A stretch of DNA of 53,158 nt from Bacteroidota bacterium. GTDB lineage: Bacteria; Bacteroidota; Bacteroidia; B-17B0; Aurantibacillaceae. A program made the position numbers and the translations under genes. A model generated the notes under the pieces. It worked only from the letters and a program-made list of their open reading frames with translations. It did not search any database and was not told the DNA's origin. Positions 43,462 to 50,196 of the stretch are shown here, piece after piece (position 1 is the first letter of the stretch; the number at the start of each line of letters is the position of its first letter). The stretch lies in assembly GCA_018267475.1 (NCBI GenBank), contig JAFDYI010000019.1, positions 1-53,158 of the forward strand, given 5' to 3'.

Positions 43462-46404
43462 CTATAAATCCCACCGTATTTCTACTTTCGTTCCGATAGG
43501 ATGTTGTTGCGCATCATACAAATCAAGAATAGAAACGGCGTAATGGACGCCCTGCACTTCGCTAAGAAGTTTTAAACGGTCGGACATGATTTTCATTCCT
43601 ATTGACTGATGATTTTTTCGAGATTGATTTTTTAGCTCTGCTGCTTTTTTTCGGCCAATCCCATTATCTTCTATACACACACACATCTGCTGGTTTTCTA
43701 TAAAAAAACGAACGCTTAAAGCGCCTTGAGTGCCTTTTGGCATCAAGCCATGCAAAATAGCGTTTTCTATATAGGGCTGTAGCAACATGGCCGGTATTTG
43801 CTCGTAGTCAATATCCAAGCGCTCATCTACGTTGATGTTGTATGTAAATGAATTATTAAATCGCATTTTTTCTAACTCTATATACAGTTGCAATGCCTCT
43901 ATCTCTTCTTTCAAGGTAATGAATGCTTTTTCTGAGTTGTTCAAAATGGTACGCATCAATTTAGAAAAACGATTGAGATAAAACACGGCGTCGTCGGTTT
44001 TTTGAGTGAGGATAAAATGCTGTATAGAATTCAACGAGTTAAACAAAAAATGAGGATTCATTTGTGCTCTCAACGCTTTCAATTCATTTTTGGCAATCTC
44101 TATTTGCATTTTACTTTTTTGCTCTTGTTCTGTTTTTAATTGATAGAGGCGTATTCTAAATATCACTACAACAAGCAGTATAGCAAACAATACCACTAAA
44201 GCTATAAACCACCAGCGTTTCCAGTATGGAGGTTGTATAGAAAAAGAAAATATTAGCGGTTCTTTATTCCACAACCCCTGATTGTTGCAACATTTTACTT
44301 TTAGCGTATATACACCTGGGGGCAGGTTGCTATACGTTACGTTATTTTGTGTGCTGGGAGGGCTCCATTGGTTTTCAAAACCTTCCAGCCAATGAGTGTA
44401 TAATACTTTTTCGGGGTTGGTTAGGCAAATGCCCATAAAATCAAAACGAATGTTGTTTTCATAATGCTTTAGTGCTGCTTTTTTAGGGAGGAGCGTATCG
44501 TCATAAAACAATTTCATGCCGGTAAAAGACAGTTTAGCTTCGTTTTCATTGTTTAAAAATTTAGTCGGGCTGTATTTTACCAATCCGTTTACCGTGCCAA
44601 ACCAGATATTGCCTTTCGCATCTTGGCTTAAACCTCCCGTATTGCACTCTAAACCATTAAATCCTTCCGCTTTTCCCAGTGAAATTATATTTTTTTCTCC
44701 TGATTGAAAAAAGCTTTTCAAATCTATTTTATTAGCTCCCTGGTTAGTGCCCGCCCAAAGAGTTTGCCCGCCATTACTAAGTAAAACCGAGTAAACTAAA
44801 TTAGAGCTTAAGCCATCTTCTTCGGTAATGCGTTGCGTTTTTTTTGTTTGTAAATTAACGAGCGATATGCCATCTAAAGTAGCTATGTATAAATAATTAT
44901 TATCTGTTTTTACATCTAGAACTGCTCGTGTTTTTAACCCAAAAGATTGGGTAATGTCGGTTATTTTTCCTCCATCAAGCCGAAATAACCCACCCAGAAA
45001 AGAAGCGACATACAAGGTTCCCTTTTCATCTTGGCACACGCTAGATACTTGGTATTCTGTGCTTTCTTTACCTAAGGGTAACGAGTAATAGTTTATTTCA
45101 CGGCTTTTGCTGTATATATTTTTTATGCAAGCTATTTTGTTTTGCAGGCCTGCCCACATATTATCCTTCTTATCTATAAACAGGCAGCGTACAAACTCAT
45201 TTTGTAAAAAGCCCGGATTGTGAAACACGTTATTTTGTGCATAACACAAGCCGTGGGCAGTGCCTATCCACACCCGGTTAAGGCTATCCACCACCAAAGC
45301 AGAAACATAGTTGTGAGGTATCTTATTTTGAGTAGAAAAATGCGTAAACAAATGGTTGGCCCGCTTATACACACCCCCGCCGCCGGTACCAAACCAAAGG
45401 GCATTATCTTTATCGCACACAATAGTTTGAATGAAAGTATTTTTTAAGCCGTCGTCAAATCCAAAATAGGCAAGACCTTCGTCTCTAAACTTAAATAAAC
45501 CGCTATGCGTACCGATCCATATATTTTGTTCATAATCCGAAGTAATGTAAGAAATAAAATTTCCACTTTCCTCTTTTGAGGGCTGATACATCGTTGTTGT
45601 ATGGTTTTCGTATTTTATAAGAGAGCGAGCGGTGCCCACCCATAAGATGTTTTTATAGTCGGCATACAAACAGGTAATCGGCTGGTTTATATCCGTGGTT
45701 GCTATTTTTTTGCAGCAGCTTTGTATCTCATAGTTAGGAATGCTGAAAAGACCGTAATTGGTGCCTATCCATAAAGTAGTATTTTTATCTATTTCAAAAG
45801 AGGTAATAATGGTATCGCTGTTAGGAGCAAAGCGGTATAGCATTTGTACTTTATTATCGTTAAACCAAAAAAGTTCTTTTTTATTGGCCGCTATATATTT
45901 ATTGGCGTTGCTTTTTATCAAAATACATTCTTTTTGTGCAAAGCGTTTATCTTGAACTATATGCTCTCCATTTAGATAAGCAATGCCTCGTTTAGTAGCA
46001 ATAGCTATCTCTTCGTTTTTTGCAGCTAAGGCGTATATATAATTATCCGGAAGTCCATTTTGTGTGGTATAATTTTTTATTTCATTTCCATAAAACACAC
46101 TCAATCCGCCCAAAGTACCTACTGCTAATTTATTTTTATTATTTTGGCTAATGGCCGTAACCCAGTAATTCACCAAGCCTTTTCGTGGGGTATAATTTAT
46201 AAATTTGGTTCCGTTAAATTTACTTAAACCGCCGTAGCCCCCTGTCCATAAATACCCTTTATCGTCTTGATAAATACTGCTTATTTGTATGTAAGGCAGG
46301 CCGTCATCAACTGTATAGTTGATAAAGTTAAAAGTTTGGGCGCTGATTTTTGTGCTTACAAAAAAAAGAACCCAAATAAATAAACATCTTTTTTTTAAAC
46401 ACAT
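43462..46404 (-). CDS. Propeller-type sensor histidine kinase (LytS/YehU class)
   Basis: 980 aa. Signal peptide-like N-terminus to about residue 22 (KISA). Residues about 25-610 contain many repeats of the kind LWTGGYGGLSKF, LWIGTNYGLF and LWFGTGGGGV, the two-component regulator propeller units that form beta-propellers in the periplasm. A Y_Y_Y-type domain (YTHWLEGFENQW, LPPGVYTLKVKCCN) follows to about 710. One membrane helix (WWFIALVVLFAILLVVVIF) is near 722-740. The kinase core is of the LytS type: H785 in LRAQMNPHFLFNSLNSIQ, then LQPYIENAILHG and IEDNGIGR. No response regulator gene is adjacent, so it is an orphan here; a LytTR-type partner is expected elsewhere. Confidence 0.93.
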   Translation of the reverse strand: MCLKKRCLFIWVLFFVSTKISAQTFNFINYTVDDGLPYIQISSIYQDDKGYLWTGGYGGLSKFNGTKFINYTPRKGLVNYWVTAISQNNKNKLAVGTLGGLSVFYGNEIKNYTTQNGLPDNYIYALAAKNEEIAIATKRGIAYLNGEHIVQDKRFAQKECILIKSNANKYIAANKKELFWFNDNKVQMLYRFAPNSDTIITSFEIDKNTTLWIGTNYGLFSIPNYEIQSCCKKIATTDINQPITCLYADYKNILWVGTARSLIKYENHTTTMYQPSKEESGNFISYITSDYEQNIWIGTHSGLFKFRDEGLAYFGFDDGLKNTFIQTIVCDKDNALWFGTGGGGVYKRANHLFTHFSTQNKIPHNYVSALVVDSLNRVWIGTAHGLCYAQNNVFHNPGFLQNEFVRCLFIDKKDNMWAGLQNKIACIKNIYSKSREINYYSLPLGKESTEYQVSSVCQDEKGTLYVASFLGGLFRLDGGKITDITQSFGLKTRAVLDVKTDNNYLYIATLDGISLVNLQTKKTQRITEEDGLSSNLVYSVLLSNGGQTLWAGTNQGANKIDLKSFFQSGEKNIISLGKAEGFNGLECNTGGLSQDAKGNIWFGTVNGLVKYSPTKFLNNENEAKLSFTGMKLFYDDTLLPKKAALKHYENNIRFDFMGICLTNPEKVLYTHWLEGFENQWSPPSTQNNVTYSNLPPGVYTLKVKCCNNQGLWNKEPLIFSFSIQPPYWKRWWFIALVVLFAILLVVVIFRIRLYQLKTEQEQKSKMQIEIAKNELKALRAQMNPHFLFNSLNSIQHFILTQKTDDAVFYLNRFSKLMRTILNNSEKAFITLKEEIEALQLYIELEKMRFNNSFTYNINVDERLDIDYEQIPAMLLQPYIENAILHGLMPKGTQGALSVRFFIENQQMCVCIEDNGIGRKKAAELKNQSRKNHQSIGMKIMSDRLKLLSEVQGVHYAVSILDLYDAQQHPIGTKVEIRWDL

Positions 46405-46557: not shown

Positions 46558-47814
46558 ATGAAGCGCATTAAATGGTGGTTGTTGTTATCTGTTTTTGTTT
46601 GTGTTTCTACACAAGCACAAAAAAAATCGCTTTATATAGACAGCCTGTTGCGCAGCGAAATGCCCTCACACAGTAAATTATGGAGTAATCCAAAAAAATA
46701 CAAGTTGCAAATTATTTACACCCAAATAACGCGCGACAAAAACAACGCGCCCCATTTCAAAAATTATTATTGGCACGTAGATAGCACCCGTTTTTTTTAT
46801 CCGGCCAGCTTAGTAAAACTACCTGTATCTATAGCTGCTTTAGAAAAAATACACAGCCTTGAAAAATACGGAATTGATAAGAACACTACTATGATTACCG
46901 ATAGCGTATATGCGTGTCAGAAAAAAGTATATAAAGATACTACCTCCGAAACAAAATACCCCAGCATAGCGCATTACGTAAAAAAAATGTTCTTAGTAAG
47001 TGATAACTATTCTTTTGCGCGCACGTATGAATTTTTAGGCTGTGATTATTTACATCAAACTACGGAAAGATGGGGATTCCCTAACATACGCATCACTAAT
47101 CGTTTAGATGCCTCCTGCAAAGCAGACACCGCTAAGATAACCCCTCCTGTTTATTTTTTATCTGAAAAAAAAGACACCTTATACAAACAGGCTCTTACTT
47201 TTTACACCTACAACAAACCACACCCATTAAAAATAGCCAAGGCAGGCAAAGCGCATACCAACGAGTTGGGCAAACGCATATACACCCCAAAAGATTTTAG
47301 CACGCATAATTTTATGAGTCTTGCTAACTGTCACGAAATTTTAAGGCGCCTCGTGTTTTACCATCACATAGAAGAAAAAAACAAGTACCGCCTCTCAACC
47401 GAAGATTGGACTTTTTTAATGCGCTACTTAGGCATGTATCCACGCGAAAGCCTATACCCTGCATACAACGAAAAAGAGTATTACGACTCGTTTAAAAAAT
47501 TTATATACTACGGCAGTGCCACGCCCACTATACCCAGCGATAGCAGCGTGCGCATATTTAATATAGTAGGACGTGCCTACGGTTTTTTAAGCGATTGCGC
47601 CTATGTGGTGGATGTAAAAAACAAGATAGAATTTATGCTGTCGGTAACTATGTATGTAAATGAGCGCGATATCATTGGAACCGGGAAATACGAATACAAC
47701 CAACTGGGATTGCCCTTTATGAAAGATTTGGGCACCTTACTATATCGCATAGAAAAAAATAGAAAAATAAAATACCCTGCCGACTTAAAAGAGTTTGATT
47801 TGTTTGCTAAGTAA
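46558..47814 (+). CDS. Exported beta-lactamase-fold serine hydrolase
   Basis: 418 aa from ATG 46558 (TTG 46516 rejected). Signal peptide MKRIKWWLLLSVFVCVSTQA. The S-x-x-K motif is S84-L-V-K87 in FYPASLVKLPV, and the S-D-N motif is S148-D-N150 in FLVSDNYSFA, as in class A beta-lactamases and low-weight PBPs. The third K-T-G-type triad is not obvious; NIVGRAYGFLSDCAYV occupies its likely place. The inserted region around 190-260 is unlike classical beta-lactamases. So it is a periplasmic or surface serine hydrolase; resistance to beta-lactams cannot be claimed. Confidence 0.82.
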   Translation: MKRIKWWLLLSVFVCVSTQAQKKSLYIDSLLRSEMPSHSKLWSNPKKYKLQIIYTQITRDKNNAPHFKNYYWHVDSTRFFYPASLVKLPVSIAALEKIHSLEKYGIDKNTTMITDSVYACQKKVYKDTTSETKYPSIAHYVKKMFLVSDNYSFARTYEFLGCDYLHQTTERWGFPNIRITNRLDASCKADTAKITPPVYFLSEKKDTLYKQALTFYTYNKPHPLKIAKAGKAHTNELGKRIYTPKDFSTHNFMSLANCHEILRRLVFYHHIEEKNKYRLSTEDWTFLMRYLGMYPRESLYPAYNEKEYYDSFKKFIYYGSATPTIPSDSSVRIFNIVGRAYGFLSDCAYVVDVKNKIEFMLSVTMYVNERDIIGTGKYEYNQLGLPFMKDLGTLLYRIEKNRKIKYPADLKEFDLFAK

Positions 47815-47823
47815 ATATCTTTG
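47794..47823 (+). promoter_or_regulatory. Promoter TTTG - 18 bp - TATCTTTG, 4 nt before the rlmI ATG
   Basis: TTTG at 47794-47797 and TATCTTTG at 47816-47823, spacer 18 bp. It overlaps the end of the serine hydrolase gene. The rlmI ATG at 47828 begins where transcription is expected to start, so the mRNA should be leaderless. Confidence 0.68.
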
Positions 47824-47827
47824 CAGC

Positions 47828-49006
47828 ATGATAACATCTATCTTTCTTCACAACGGAAAAGAAATTTCCTTGCTGCGCCGCCACCCTTGGGTTTTTTCGG
47901 GAGCTATAAAAATAACAGAAGGCAACCCACAAGACGGGGATGTCGTAGCTGTATATACCGCCAACAAAAAATTTCTAGGAATAGGGCACTATCAAGTAAA
48001 AAACAGCATTACCGTGCGCATCATCTCTTTTGAAGAAACAGAGATAAACCAACCCTTTTGGAACCAAAAAATACAAAACGCTTTTGCATACCGACAAGCA
48101 TTAGGCCTAACCCATAATAACGACACCAATACCTACCGTTTAATTTTTGGTGAAGCCGACGGCCTGCCCGGCCTAGTGGTGGACTACTACAACCAACATC
48201 TTGTGGTGCAGTGCCACACCGTAGGTATGCACCGGCATATACACCACATTGCAGAAGCTATTAAAAAAGTATATGCTGATACTTTAAAAACCATTTACGA
48301 TAAAAGCAAAGAAACCTTGCCAAAAAATTACGCTCAAACGATGCAAAACACCTTTATTTATGGAGATGCTGAGCAAACCGTAGTAAAAGAAAACGGGCAT
48401 CAGTTTGCCGTTAATTGGCTAAGTGGACAAAAAACCGGTTTTTTTGTGGATCAGCGCGAAAACAGAAAACTACTAGCGCACTATGCAGAAAATAAAACGA
48501 TACTCAACACATTTTGTTATACAGGGGGCTTTTCGGTATATGCGGCTGCGGCAGGTGCCAAAGAAGTACACTCTATAGATGTTTCAAAAACAGCTATAAC
48601 ACTTACCGATAGCAATATGGAACTAAATACACTAACACAACATAAAAGTTTTTGCTGTGATACCTTTGATTTTTTGAAAGATAAAAAAGATGTGTACGAC
48701 CTCATTATTTTAGACCCTCCTGCCTTTGCTAAAAGCAAAGACGCCCGCCACAATGCCGTTATTGGATACAAACGTCTTAATGAAATGGCTTTGCGTATGA
48801 TAAAAAGCAAGGGAGTACTGTTTACTTTTTCGTGCTCGGGTGTGGTAGACAAAAATTTGTTTTTTAATACCGTATATGCTGCTGTGTATGAAAGCAAACG
48901 AAACGTAAAAATACTGCATTACCTTTCACAACCTGCCGACCACCCCCTATCTCCTAATTTTCCTGAAGGGGAGTACCTGAAAGGTTTGGTGCTGTATGTA
49001 GCGTAA
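47828..49006 (+). CDS. rlmI: 23S rRNA (cytosine-C5)-methyltransferase, RlmI family
   Basis: 392 aa from ATG 47828; TTG 47795 would start inside the promoter. An N-terminal PUA-like RNA-binding domain (FLHNGKEISLLRRHPWVFSGAI) is followed by the EEHB-like middle part with FGEADGLPGLVVDYY. The SAM-dependent methyltransferase domain has GQKTGFFVDQRENR, LNTFCYTGGFSVYAA, IILDPPAFAKS and FTFSCSGVV with the catalytic Cys. In E. coli RlmI methylates C1962 of 23S rRNA; target by family analogy. Confidence 0.9.
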   Translation: MITSIFLHNGKEISLLRRHPWVFSGAIKITEGNPQDGDVVAVYTANKKFLGIGHYQVKNSITVRIISFEETEINQPFWNQKIQNAFAYRQALGLTHNNDTNTYRLIFGEADGLPGLVVDYYNQHLVVQCHTVGMHRHIHHIAEAIKKVYADTLKTIYDKSKETLPKNYAQTMQNTFIYGDAEQTVVKENGHQFAVNWLSGQKTGFFVDQRENRKLLAHYAENKTILNTFCYTGGFSVYAAAAGAKEVHSIDVSKTAITLTDSNMELNTLTQHKSFCCDTFDFLKDKKDVYDLIILDPPAFAKSKDARHNAVIGYKRLNEMALRMIKSKGVLFTFSCSGVVDKNLFFNTVYAAVYESKRNVKILHYLSQPADHPLSPNFPEGEYLKGLVLYVA

Positions 49007-49056
49007 GGTGTTGGGTGCAAAAAAACGTATTGATGTATTTATAATAAATTAACTTT

Positions 49057-49084
49057 TTTGTGTAAACATTTTTGTTTATTTTTG
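49057..49084 (+). promoter_or_regulatory. Promoter and candidate autoregulatory operator of the toxin-antitoxin pair
   Basis: TTTG at 49057-49060 and TATTTTTG at 49077-49084 (16-bp spacer) form a plausible promoter ending 4 nt before the antitoxin ATG. A perfect inverted repeat, TAAACA (49063-49068), TTTT, TGTTTA (49073-49078), fills the spacer and reaches the -7 box. An HTH antitoxin bound there would block RNA polymerase. A second small palindrome, TTTATAATAAA, is at 49038-49048. Confidence 0.55.
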
Positions 49085-49088
49085 TATT

Positions 49089-49547
49089 ATGAAACGAAAC
49101 ATCAATGCCATTAAAGGAATACACCCAGGCGTCATATTAGAGCAAGAACTGAAAAAACGAAAGATGGCTAAGGGGCGTTTTGCTATTTCTTTAAATGAAT
49201 TTCCGCAAACACTTGTTTCTATCACAAAAGGAAAAAGAAAAATGAATACTCCTCTATCTATAAAAATAGAAAAAGCGCTAGACTTAAAAGAAGGCTACCT
49301 GATGACCTTACAGGTGTATTACGATATTGAACAAGAAAAAAAGAAGCAATTATTCCAAACGCCTGATTTACATAAAATCCGCCCTGCTTTGTTTTGGGAT
49401 ACTGCGATTGAAAAAATTAATTGGCAAAAACAAAAAAAAACGATTATTAAACGGGTTTTTGAACGAGGAAATGAAATCGAAAAAAAAGAAATAGCTCGTT
49501 TTTATGGTAAAAAACAGGTTACCCAAATCTTAAAAGAAATTGCATAA
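49089..49547 (+). CDS. HTH-domain antitoxin (HigA-like), partner of AbiEii-type toxin
   Basis: 152 aa. Residues about 10-70 resemble the HigA/plasmid-maintenance antidote HTH domain: IHPGVILEQELKKRKM, AISLNEFPQTLVSITKGKRKM, TPLSIKIEKALDLKEGYLM. The C-terminal half is Lys-rich with a helical repeat ending KKQVTQILKEIA and is not recognised; it may bind the toxin. It overlaps the toxin gene by 8 bp and has a candidate operator upstream. The pair is AT-rich: sampled 60-base lines in the toxin have 27-28 percent GC, while lines in rlmI and the GH3-family gene range from 33 to 52 percent. This suggests horizontal acquisition. Confidence 0.75.
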   Translation: MKRNINAIKGIHPGVILEQELKKRKMAKGRFAISLNEFPQTLVSITKGKRKMNTPLSIKIEKALDLKEGYLMTLQVYYDIEQEKKKQLFQTPDLHKIRPALFWDTAIEKINWQKQKKTIIKRVFERGNEIEKKEIARFYGKKQVTQILKEIA

Positions 49548-50196
49548 ACTATTTTATTCAACCATTAACCCTACGCTGCATCAAATCCTATTAAATTTAA
49601 TGCAAGCAGAAGAATTTAAATCATTCCGATTAGTTGGGGGCACTGCTTTAAGTTTGTATCGAGGGCATCGAAAATCTATTGATATAGACTTATTTACAGA
49701 TGTGGAATACGGTTCAGTTGATTTTAATCAAATTACTACTTTTTTAAAAAAACAATACAGCTATGTAGATACTAGCAAAGACCATTTAATTGGATTTGGA
49801 AAATCATACTTTGTTGGAAACAACAACATGGACAGTATTAAACTAGATGTGTTTTATACAGATACTTTCATGCAAAACGCTCTACTGATAGATGGCATTC
49901 GCTTAACAAGCATAGAAGATATTATTGCCATGAAGTTAGATGTCATTAGTAGAGGTGGTCGCAAAAAAGACTTTTGGGATATTCATGAACTAATGAATGA
50001 TTATACGGTTCAAACCATGTTTAATCTACATCGAAAAAAACACCCTTACACCCACCATACTCAAGAGCTAAAAGAGAAGTTTTGTGATTTTTCAAATGCA
50101 GAAGATGACTTTGAGCCGGTTTGTTTTAAAGGAAAGCACTGGCAACTAATTAAGATGGATTTGATTGATTTTGTTAGTAAACTAAGCAGATATTAA
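49540..50196 (+). CDS. AbiEii/AbiGii-type nucleotidyltransferase toxin
   Basis: 218 aa from TTG 49540, which overlaps the antitoxin's last codons by 8 bp. The nucleotidyltransferase motif FRLVGGTALSLYRGHRKSIDIDLF has the G33-G34 pair and metal-binding D48 and D50. The later motif IAMKLDVISRGGRKKDFWDIHEL matches the conserved K and D segment of AbiEii proteins. The family includes abortive-infection and type IV toxins that transfer nucleotides to tRNA or other targets. The TTG start gives the usual lead of about 30 residues before GG-T-A; an ATG at 49603 would leave only about 10. Target is unknown. Confidence 0.82.
   Translation: MHKLFYSTINPTLHQILLNLMQAEEFKSFRLVGGTALSLYRGHRKSIDIDLFTDVEYGSVDFNQITTFLKKQYSYVDTSKDHLIGFGKSYFVGNNNMDSIKLDVFYTDTFMQNALLIDGIRLTSIEDIIAMKLDVISRGGRKKDFWDIHELMNDYTVQTMFNLHRKKHPYTHHTQELKEKFCDFSNAEDDFEPVCFKGKHWQLIKMDLIDFVSKLSRY

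What the first reader, a model, noticed from the sequence alone, without database searches (positions are those of the whole stretch)
49038..50196. Non-canonical toxin-antitoxin pair: HigA-like HTH antitoxin with AbiEii-type nucleotidyltransferase toxin, plus candidate operator
Classical AbiE systems pair the toxin with AbiEi, a winged-helix antitoxin. Here the partner looks like a HigA-type HTH protein with an unrecognised Lys-rich C-terminal half. The genes overlap by 8 bp with a TTG toxin start. A perfect inverted repeat (TAAACA-TTTT-TGTTTA) fills the promoter spacer, as expected for autoregulation. Sampled lines of the toxin are 27-28 percent GC, lower than neighbouring genes. The pair may be a mobile defence or persistence module with a variant regulatory logic. 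Similar pairs may exist in other Bacteroidota; I cannot check.
Basis: partly seen in the sequence, partly recalled or inferred. Interest (0 to 1): 0.72.

Follow-up and report, generated by a model that had tools for sequence, protein, structure and literature searches.

The report
Nucleotidyltransferase toxin with HigA-DUF6922 antitoxin
A two-gene, probably mobile bacterial poison-antidote module whose antidote protein joins a borrowed DNA-binding repressor to a small, unstudied domain that seems to restrain a tRNA-modifying-type toxin, with a gene switch shared by many relatives in the phylum Bacteroidota.

Summary
The pair is real. Gene 1 (49089-49547) is a HigA-type HTH fused to Pfam DUF6922; gene 2 (49540-50196) is an AbiEii-family nucleotidyltransferase with its catalytic motifs. 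The "unrecognised" half is thus a named but unstudied domain. Of 80 related HTH-DUF6922 loci, 74 have the toxin or a remnant directly downstream; in 22 of 79 evaluable loci the toxin is broken or gone while the antitoxin gene remains. From the toxin side, 25 of 25 close matches lie beside a DUF6922 gene. This asymmetry fits a toxin-antitoxin pair. Most DUF6922 genes lack the HTH, and one HTH loss inside the HTH clade keeps an intact toxin, so DUF6922 is the likely neutraliser and the HTH an added autorepressor. The palindrome alone is no better than chance, but TAARCA-N4-TGYTTA recurs in 69 of 81 promoters (shuffles 0.54) and overlaps the -7 element, whose spacing predicts leaderless antitoxin mRNA (48 of 81 genes; control 6 of 656). 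No AbiEi or HigB is present. Verdict: new variant of a known kind. Toxicity, neutralisation, DNA binding and phage defence are untested.

The parts
49057..49060 (+). TTTG, possible -33 promoter element (weak)
   Evidence: Read directly; 16 bp from the -7 element. A -33 motif is hardly visible in F. johnsoniae promoters (PMC6847099 passage), so this is uncertain.
49063..49078 (.). Operator palindrome TAAACATTTTTGTTTA, family consensus TAARCA-N4-TGYTTA
   Evidence: At most 1 mismatch in 69 of 81 family promoters, shuffled mean 0.54, 0 of 21 HTH-less controls; 4 perfect sites in the 2.76-Mb own genome, reversed-pattern control 5
49077..49084 (+). -7 promoter element TATTTTTG (TAnnTTTG), sharing TA with the end of the operator
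   Evidence: Exact TAHHTTTG in this register in 43 of the 56 loci whose operator lies at -25 to -27; with T at -12 (PMC6847099 passage) the predicted transcription start is 49089, the A of the ATG
49089..49547 (+). Antitoxin gene, 152 aa: HigA-type HTH fused to DUF6922
49113..49343 (+). HigA-type HTH (residues 9-85), with P39-Q40-T41 in the recognition helix
   Evidence: TIGR02607; best structural row 3trb_B (HigA family), Z 13.5, rmsd 4.8, 89 residues; comparison with operators
49377..49532 (+). DUF6922 (residues 97-148), proposed toxin-neutralising domain
   Evidence: PF21956 E 1.4e-23; found in 68 of 68 members scanned; F102 W103 D104 T105 W112 R122 G127 Y139 invariant in 68 sequences
49540..50196 (+). 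Toxin gene, 218 aa, AbiEii-family nucleotidyltransferase; TTG start overlaps the antitoxin stop by 8 bp
   Evidence: PF08843 E 3.5e-18; model pLDDT 94.5, pTM 0.90; H. pylori nucleotidyltransferases 4ok0 Z 14.5 and JHP933 4o8s Z 14.2, MenT4 13.8, MenT3/TglT up to 13.2, MenT1 12.0
49636..49689 (+). Toxin motifs I-II: G33 G34 T35 ... R44 ... D48-x-D50
   Evidence: Invariant in 54 of 54 toxins aligned; motif definitions from PMC3985639 passages
49933..49980 (+). Toxin motifs III-IV: K132 ... R141 K142 K143 D144 F145 W146 D147 (+DxxD)
   Evidence: Invariant in 54 of 54 toxins aligned; motif definitions from PMC3985639 passages

Best explanation
An autoregulated toxin-antitoxin operon. Gene 2 makes an AbiEii/MenT-like nucleotidyltransferase that, when free, most likely adds nucleotides to tRNA 3' ends and stops translation. 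Gene 1 makes the antitoxin: its DUF6922 domain restrains the toxin, most likely by direct contact, and its HigA-type HTH, presumably as a dimer, binds the 16-bp palindrome, which shares bases with the -7 promoter element, so bound antitoxin blocks its own promoter. Transcription is predicted to start at the A of the antitoxin ATG (leaderless mRNA), and the toxin starts at a TTG inside the antitoxin stop, so toxin output may depend on antitoxin translation. Shown by sequence: domains, pairing, toxin decay with antitoxin kept, operator conservation, catalytic motifs. Inferred: toxicity, tRNA target, neutralisation and its mode, DNA binding, start site, translational coupling.
For: Pairing: 74 of 80 HTH-DUF6922 loci have the toxin or a remnant directly downstream; 25 of 25 toxin matches at E up to 1e-30 in 395 genomes, the window included, lie beside a DUF6922 match (coordinates compared). 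Decay: of 80 loci 57 toxins intact, 16 broken, 6 absent, 1 cut by the contig end. DUF6922 is the constant part: 38 of 46 DUF6922 matches have no HTH and 33 of 46 have an AbiEii-like gene or remnant downstream; HTH-less L018 nests in the HTH clade (99/96 with L092) and its toxin frame is intact. Operator; helix comparison; -7 overlap and spacing (48 of 81 against 6 of 656). Catalytic motifs invariant in 54 toxins; folds. No third conserved gene: the most recurrent flanking family is at 6 of 80 loci. Toxin and antitoxin distances correlate over 51 pairs, r 0.59, 0 of 2000 permutations as high.
Against: No experiment was possible. Pairing and decay also fit a regulator with a dispensable enzyme. 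The 80 loci (of 112 found) were fetched through the antitoxin, so antitoxin loss could not be seen there; the toxin-side count is small and mixes HTH and HTH-less pairs. Some broken frames may be assembly errors, as many loci are from metagenome bins. One DUF6922 gene with stops (L027) stands before only a scrap of toxin. DUF6922 alone correlates less with the toxin (r 0.31) than the HTH does (0.59). By the strict consensus 12 of 81 promoters have 2 or more mismatches, by the relaxed one 6 of 81; the copy L185 in a relative has none. L089 has a TAACCA-TGGTTA operator yet keeps P39-T41. The start codons of the 656 control ORFs are simply first ATGs, whereas antitoxin starts were placed by alignment, which inflates the contrast. 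The toxin model also resembles the ANT(2'')-Ia aminoglycoside nucleotidyltransferase (Z 11.3), so the fold does not show a tRNA target.
Confidence: 0.8

Rival explanations
1. A divergent but ordinary AbiE system: the antitoxin is an AbiEi in disguise and works without direct contact (type IV).
For: The toxin is a genuine AbiEii relative; the abiE promoter also carries autoregulatory inverted repeats (PMC3985639 passages).
Against: No AbiEi family among the Pfam matches of 68 members; the N-terminal part has the HigA fold, Z up to 13.5; the operator is one 16-bp palindrome, not two 11-bp repeats 27 bp apart.
Confidence: 0.06
2. The antitoxin acts mainly by inducing modification of the toxin (auto-phosphorylation of the motif I Thr, as reported for MenT1 and MenT3) rather than by blocking it.
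For: T35 beside the GG motif is invariant in 54 of 54 toxins; the structurally unrelated MenA1 and MenA3 both lead to phosphorylation of their toxins (PMC11375011, introduction and passages).
Against: T35 is part of a catalytic motif and may be conserved for that reason; nothing here separates the two modes.
Confidence: 0.25
3. Not a toxin-antitoxin pair: a HigA-type repressor controlling a metabolic nucleotidyltransferase.
For: No toxicity data; the toxin is broken or absent at 22 of 79 loci.
Against: 25 of 25 close toxin matches have the partner; patchy and plasmid-borne distribution, low GC; nearest structures are H. pylori JHP933 and MenT toxins.
Confidence: 0.08
4. A phage-sensing defence module in which HTH or DUF6922 detects a phage product and frees the toxin (compatible with the best explanation).
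For: AbiE systems can give phage resistance (PMC3985639 passage); patchy, mobile-looking distribution.
Against: No defence-island evidence was gathered; no phage record (of 50,697) and one viral contig, carrying both genes, show relatives, so phage-borne antidotes were not seen.
Confidence: 0.3

Closest known systems
AbiE (AbiEi-AbiEii) type IV toxin-antitoxin system
   Same: AbiEii-family toxin with motifs I-IV; antitoxin gene first; adjacent genes; inverted repeats in the promoter
   Different: Antitoxin is HigA-type HTH plus DUF6922 with no AbiEi match; one palindrome overlapping the -7 element; predicted leaderless mRNA
MenAT1, MenAT3 and MenAT4 of Mycobacterium tuberculosis
   Same: Toxin fold (MenT4 Z 13.8, MenT3/TglT up to 13.2, MenT1 12.0); MenT toxins too are paired with unrelated antitoxins (PMC11375011)
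   Different: Antitoxin of another architecture; DUF6922 was not compared directly with MenA1
HigBA / GraTA
   Same: HTH of the HigA fold, probable palindromic operator in its own promoter
   Different: No HigB next to it; extra DUF6922 domain; toxin is a nucleotidyltransferase
JHP933 of Helicobacter pylori (4o8s) and the H. pylori nucleotidyltransferase 4ok0
   Same: Closest solved structures of the toxin: 4ok0_B Z 14.5, rmsd 3.5, 192 residues; 4o8s Z 14.2, rmsd 3.6, 191 residues; 20% identity each
   Different: Their partners were not compared here
HTH-less DUF6922-AbiEii pairs of Bacteroidota
   Same: Same two families in the same order
   Different: No HTH; this operator in 0 of 21; often a C-terminal tail with an RCY motif, absent from the HTH form

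Membership tests
AbiE (type IV TA) | AbiEii/DUF1814 nucleotidyltransferase toxin with motifs I-IV | tested here: met
   PF08843 66.9 bits over 22.5; motif residues invariant in 54 of 54; fold
AbiE (type IV TA) | AbiEi (COG5340-type, winged-helix) antitoxin | tested here: not met
   Pfam scan of 68 members: DUF6922 in 68, HTH_3 in 41, no AbiEi family at E up to 0.01; none for the window protein at E up to 1. Profile level only.
AbiE (type IV TA) | Antitoxin does not bind the toxin directly | not testable with these tools
   No complex prediction or binding assay available
HigBA | HigA family at the curated score | tested here: not met
   TIGR02607 36.3 bits, cut-off 47.7; the fold alone matches
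HigBA | Adjacent HigB (RelE-like) toxin | tested here: not met
   The + strand neighbours are an RlmI-like methyltransferase and the AbiEii gene
DUF6922 (PF21956) | Match above the Pfam gathering score | tested here: met
   82.6 bits over 27
MenAT | MenT-type toxin fold | tested here: met
   MenT4 Z 13.8, rmsd 3.4, 203 residues; MenT3/TglT up to 13.2; MenT1 12.0
MenAT | MenA antitoxin of one of the three known families | tested here: inconclusive
   The profile search of solved chains gave HigA/XRE-type proteins above noise; MenA1 was not compared directly and the DUF6922 part was hardly tested by fold search
Autoregulated type II TA | Antitoxin binds an operator in its own promoter | tested here: inconclusive
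   Strong footprint and some helix-operator agreement; binding itself was not testable
Autoregulated type II TA | Antitoxin neutralises the toxin by binding it | not testable with these tools
   Only single-chain structure prediction was available

The most novel reading that the evidence does not exclude
DUF6922 is an undescribed antitoxin domain dedicated to a clade of AbiEii nucleotidyltransferases in Bacteroidota. It works as a bare domain in most lineages, and once captured a HigA repressor that turned a free neutraliser into an autorepressor. The resulting operon is read as a leaderless mRNA from a promoter whose -7 element is built into the operator, so antitoxin synthesis uses a different initiation route from most cell proteins and may continue or recover differently when the toxin damages tRNAs.
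Probability: 0.5. Interest if true: 0.7.

Novelty: new variant of a known kind. Interest (0 to 1): 0.56.

Why it matters
It proposes a function (antitoxin) for a Pfam domain of unknown function and shows that a nucleotidyltransferase-toxin clade keeps this domain while the DNA-binding part is optional, so neutralisation and autoregulation can be separated with natural variants (HTH-bearing, HTH-less, and the HTH loss in L018). The conserved operator, its partial agreement with the recognition helix, and the leaderless promoter spacing give direct, cheap tests in Bacteroidota, including plasmids of gut species.

Tried and rejected
Single-genome palindrome statistics: rejected as evidence (849 of 2000 shuffles). 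HigBA membership: rejected. AbiEi membership: rejected at profile level. Empty-site test: inconclusive; 0 of 29 other GH3 loci with up to 1.5-kb flanks hold rlmI, antitoxin or toxin, and rlmI in six congeners is followed by other genes where the flank could be read, so no clean pre-insertion site could be named. Fold search for DUF6922: the rows cover mainly model residues 7-99, so the domain was hardly tested; the 50 viral rows shown are mostly HTH or repressor proteins or nameless. AbiEi was not among the rows listed for the antitoxin model, which proves nothing. Third-gene search: no conserved partner.

Literature: DUF6922 0 papers; AbiEii with nucleotidyltransferase, antitoxin and HigA 4; with Bacteroidetes, toxin-antitoxin and helix-turn-helix 1; with Xre 16, 15 listed; a wider search 37, 15 listed; with Bacteroides and antitoxin 6. 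I saw search listings only, apart from passages of PMC3985639, PMC12654330, PMC9723704 and PMC6847099, and the introduction and passages of PMC11375011. No title or abstract start in these listings names this pair; that is not a full literature check. PMC12654330 (passages) lists AbiEii with hypothetical or DUF6088 partners, so non-AbiEi partners as such are on record. Leaderless mRNA and antitoxin occur together in 156 papers (10 listed, none read).

Limits of the counts: the operator consensus was first read from 7 loci, the window and six that recur among the 80; without these it is 62 of 74. The shuffles left out the one locus (L103) with under 60 bases upstream. The helix comparison used selected rows: 5 TAATCA loci (all R39 with I or V41), 4 loci with CAAAC-type arms (N or S39), 19 TAARCA loci (18 P39, 1 A39), and 3 TAACCA-type loci that do not follow a rule (L089 and L093 P39, L087 K39); loci sharing an altered operator group together where they are in the toxin tree, so there are few independent events. 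Alignments A2 and A3 used 67 of 80 antitoxins and 53 of 57 intact toxins, plus the window. The toxin model was built from 19 of the same loci and is partly circular; the count of 25 of 25 rests on another profile, built from toxins beside HTH-DUF6922 genes.

Full report
WHAT IS THERE. Two overlapping genes, 49089-49547 and 49540-50196 on the + strand, lie between an RlmI-like methyltransferase gene (47795-49006) and a convergent GH3-family gene. Gene 1 is a HigA-type HTH followed by PF21956 DUF6922. Its model (68-sequence alignment) is all helical, mean pLDDT 92.3, pTM 0.61, so the placement of the two halves is unsure. Gene 2 is PF08843 AbiEii, model pLDDT 94.5, pTM 0.90. In the own genome the only DUF6922 match over the cut-off and the only AbiEii match are these two.

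IS IT A UNIT. A scan of genome contigs with the first seven antitoxins gave 112 relatives; the best 80 were returned, and their record titles name Bacteroidota groups. In 74 of 80 the toxin or a remnant follows directly. By state: 57 intact, 16 broken, 6 absent, 1 cut by the contig end. From the other side, 25 toxin matches at E up to 1e-30 in 395 Bacteroidota genomes (the window included; two of them broken) all lie directly beside a DUF6922 match (coordinates compared by hand). So close toxin relatives without the partner were not seen, while partners without a working toxin are common, the order of loss expected of a toxin-antitoxin pair. Some frame breaks may be assembly errors. Flanking genes are not conserved: the most frequent family is at 6 of 80 loci and looks like an integrase (my label, no profile search).

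WHICH DOMAIN NEUTRALISES. The 395-genome sample has 46 DUF6922 matches in 38 genomes (E up to 0.001); 8 carry the HTH, 38 do not, and 33 have an AbiEii-like gene or remnant downstream. Many HTH-less proteins carry a C-terminal RCY-type tail that the 8 HTH proteins lack. In a toxin tree of 68 rows the HTH group needs two changes; L018, without HTH, sits inside the HTH clade beside L092 (99/96), and its toxin frame is intact. The simplest reading is that DUF6922 restrains the toxin and the HTH is an added repressor. This is inference.

THE OPERATOR. The palindrome alone is not significant. In the family it is: at most one mismatch to TAARCA-N4-TGYTTA in 69 of 81 promoters (60 perfect) against 0.54 from shuffles, and 0 of 21 HTH-less DUF6922 loci. 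More than about five bases away, conservation falls off apart from the promoter element and start codon. At half-site position 4 and its partner, 59 of 75 sites are complementary: A/T 50, T/A 5, G/C 3, C/G 1; 16 are not: A/C 8, G/T 5, three others. In selected rows, TAATCA operators go with R39 and I/V41 in the recognition helix, TAARCA operators mostly with P39 and T/S41; L089 (TAACCA-TGGTTA) breaks the pattern. The site also stands before mobile copies: perfect on the Microscilla plasmid and the viral contig, as TAACCA-TGGTTA on the B. fragilis plasmid; of 7 copies in relatives, 6 have at most one mismatch and L185 has none. The own genome has 4 perfect sites, the reversed-pattern control 5, so the other three need mean nothing.

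THE PROMOTER. With the relaxed consensus 75 of 81 loci have an operator; in 56 it lies at -25 to -27 from the start codon, and in 43 of these its last TA begins an exact TAHHTTTG. F. johnsoniae mapping puts T at -12 and G at -5 (PMC6847099 passage); here T is 49077, so transcription should begin at 49089, the A of the ATG. A start within one base of the first codon base is predicted for 48 of 81 antitoxin genes and for 6 of 656 flanking ATG ORFs, whose starts were not verified. Leaderless messages were 5.5% in F. psychrophilum (PMC9723704 passage). In 13 loci the operator lies further upstream, so a second layout exists.

THE TOXIN. G33 G34 T35, R44, D48, D50, K101, D103, K132 and R141 to D147 are invariant in 54 sequences and fit the published motifs hG[G/S]...DhD, motif III Lys and +DxxD (PMC3985639 passages). 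Structural neighbours are the H. pylori proteins 4ok0 and JHP933, MenT4, MenT3 and MenT1, then ANT(2'')-Ia at Z 11.3. MenT1 and MenT3 add pyrimidines to tRNA 3' ends (PMC11375011 introduction); that this toxin does so is analogy.

MOBILITY. Full-length antitoxin matches occur in 8 of 60 relatives and 2 of 7 genus members; the congener's copy stands between other genes. Both genes occur on four plasmid records. The pair has the lowest GC of 31 ORFs in the window. Several toxin clades mix Bacteroidota families. The genes next to the window copy are not mobile-element genes; wider surroundings were not searched for them.

CLASSIFICATION. It works like a toxin-antitoxin module with an AbiEii toxin. 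It is not AbiE by the AbiEi criterion and not HigBA. It is a new variant of a known kind; DUF6922 as an antitoxin domain was not found in the searches named under Tried and rejected. On checking, confidence was lowered slightly (0.82 to 0.80) for the exceptions now listed.

Noticed in passing
L010:1270-1776 and L014:1381-1941 (minus): DUF6922 proteins with a different N-terminal extension of about 75-95 aa that matches no Pfam family above cut-off; possibly a second module fused to DUF6922.
   Followed up: partly
L225 (Bacteroides fragilis plasmid NZ_CP054002.1), 1-5418: The pair stands after a second annotated AbiEii-family gene and a toprim-domain gene, with a recombinase gene further upstream; possible stacked defence or addiction genes.
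   Followed up: no
L220 and L221 (genome G273): Two similar DUF6922-like proteins in one genome without a recognised AbiEii downstream; perhaps orphan antitoxins or a different partner.
   Followed up: no
promoters of L050, L052, L053, L056, L105, L108, L111, L112, L115, L118, L120-L122: A second layout with the operator 52-66 bases before the start codon; where an exact -7 element was found it is apart from the operator, mostly giving a leadered mRNA, though L052 and L053 still have one at the leaderless position.
   Followed up: partly
toxin model against PDB 6y8q: The AbiEi antitoxin of Streptococcus agalactiae (6y8q) appears among the structural rows of the toxin model, not of the antitoxin model (Z 8.3, rmsd 3.8, 131 residues).
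   Followed up: no
window 43462-46404 (minus): 980-aa protein that looks like a sensor histidine kinase with repeated N-terminal motifs; label from reading the sequence only, no search run.
   Followed up: no
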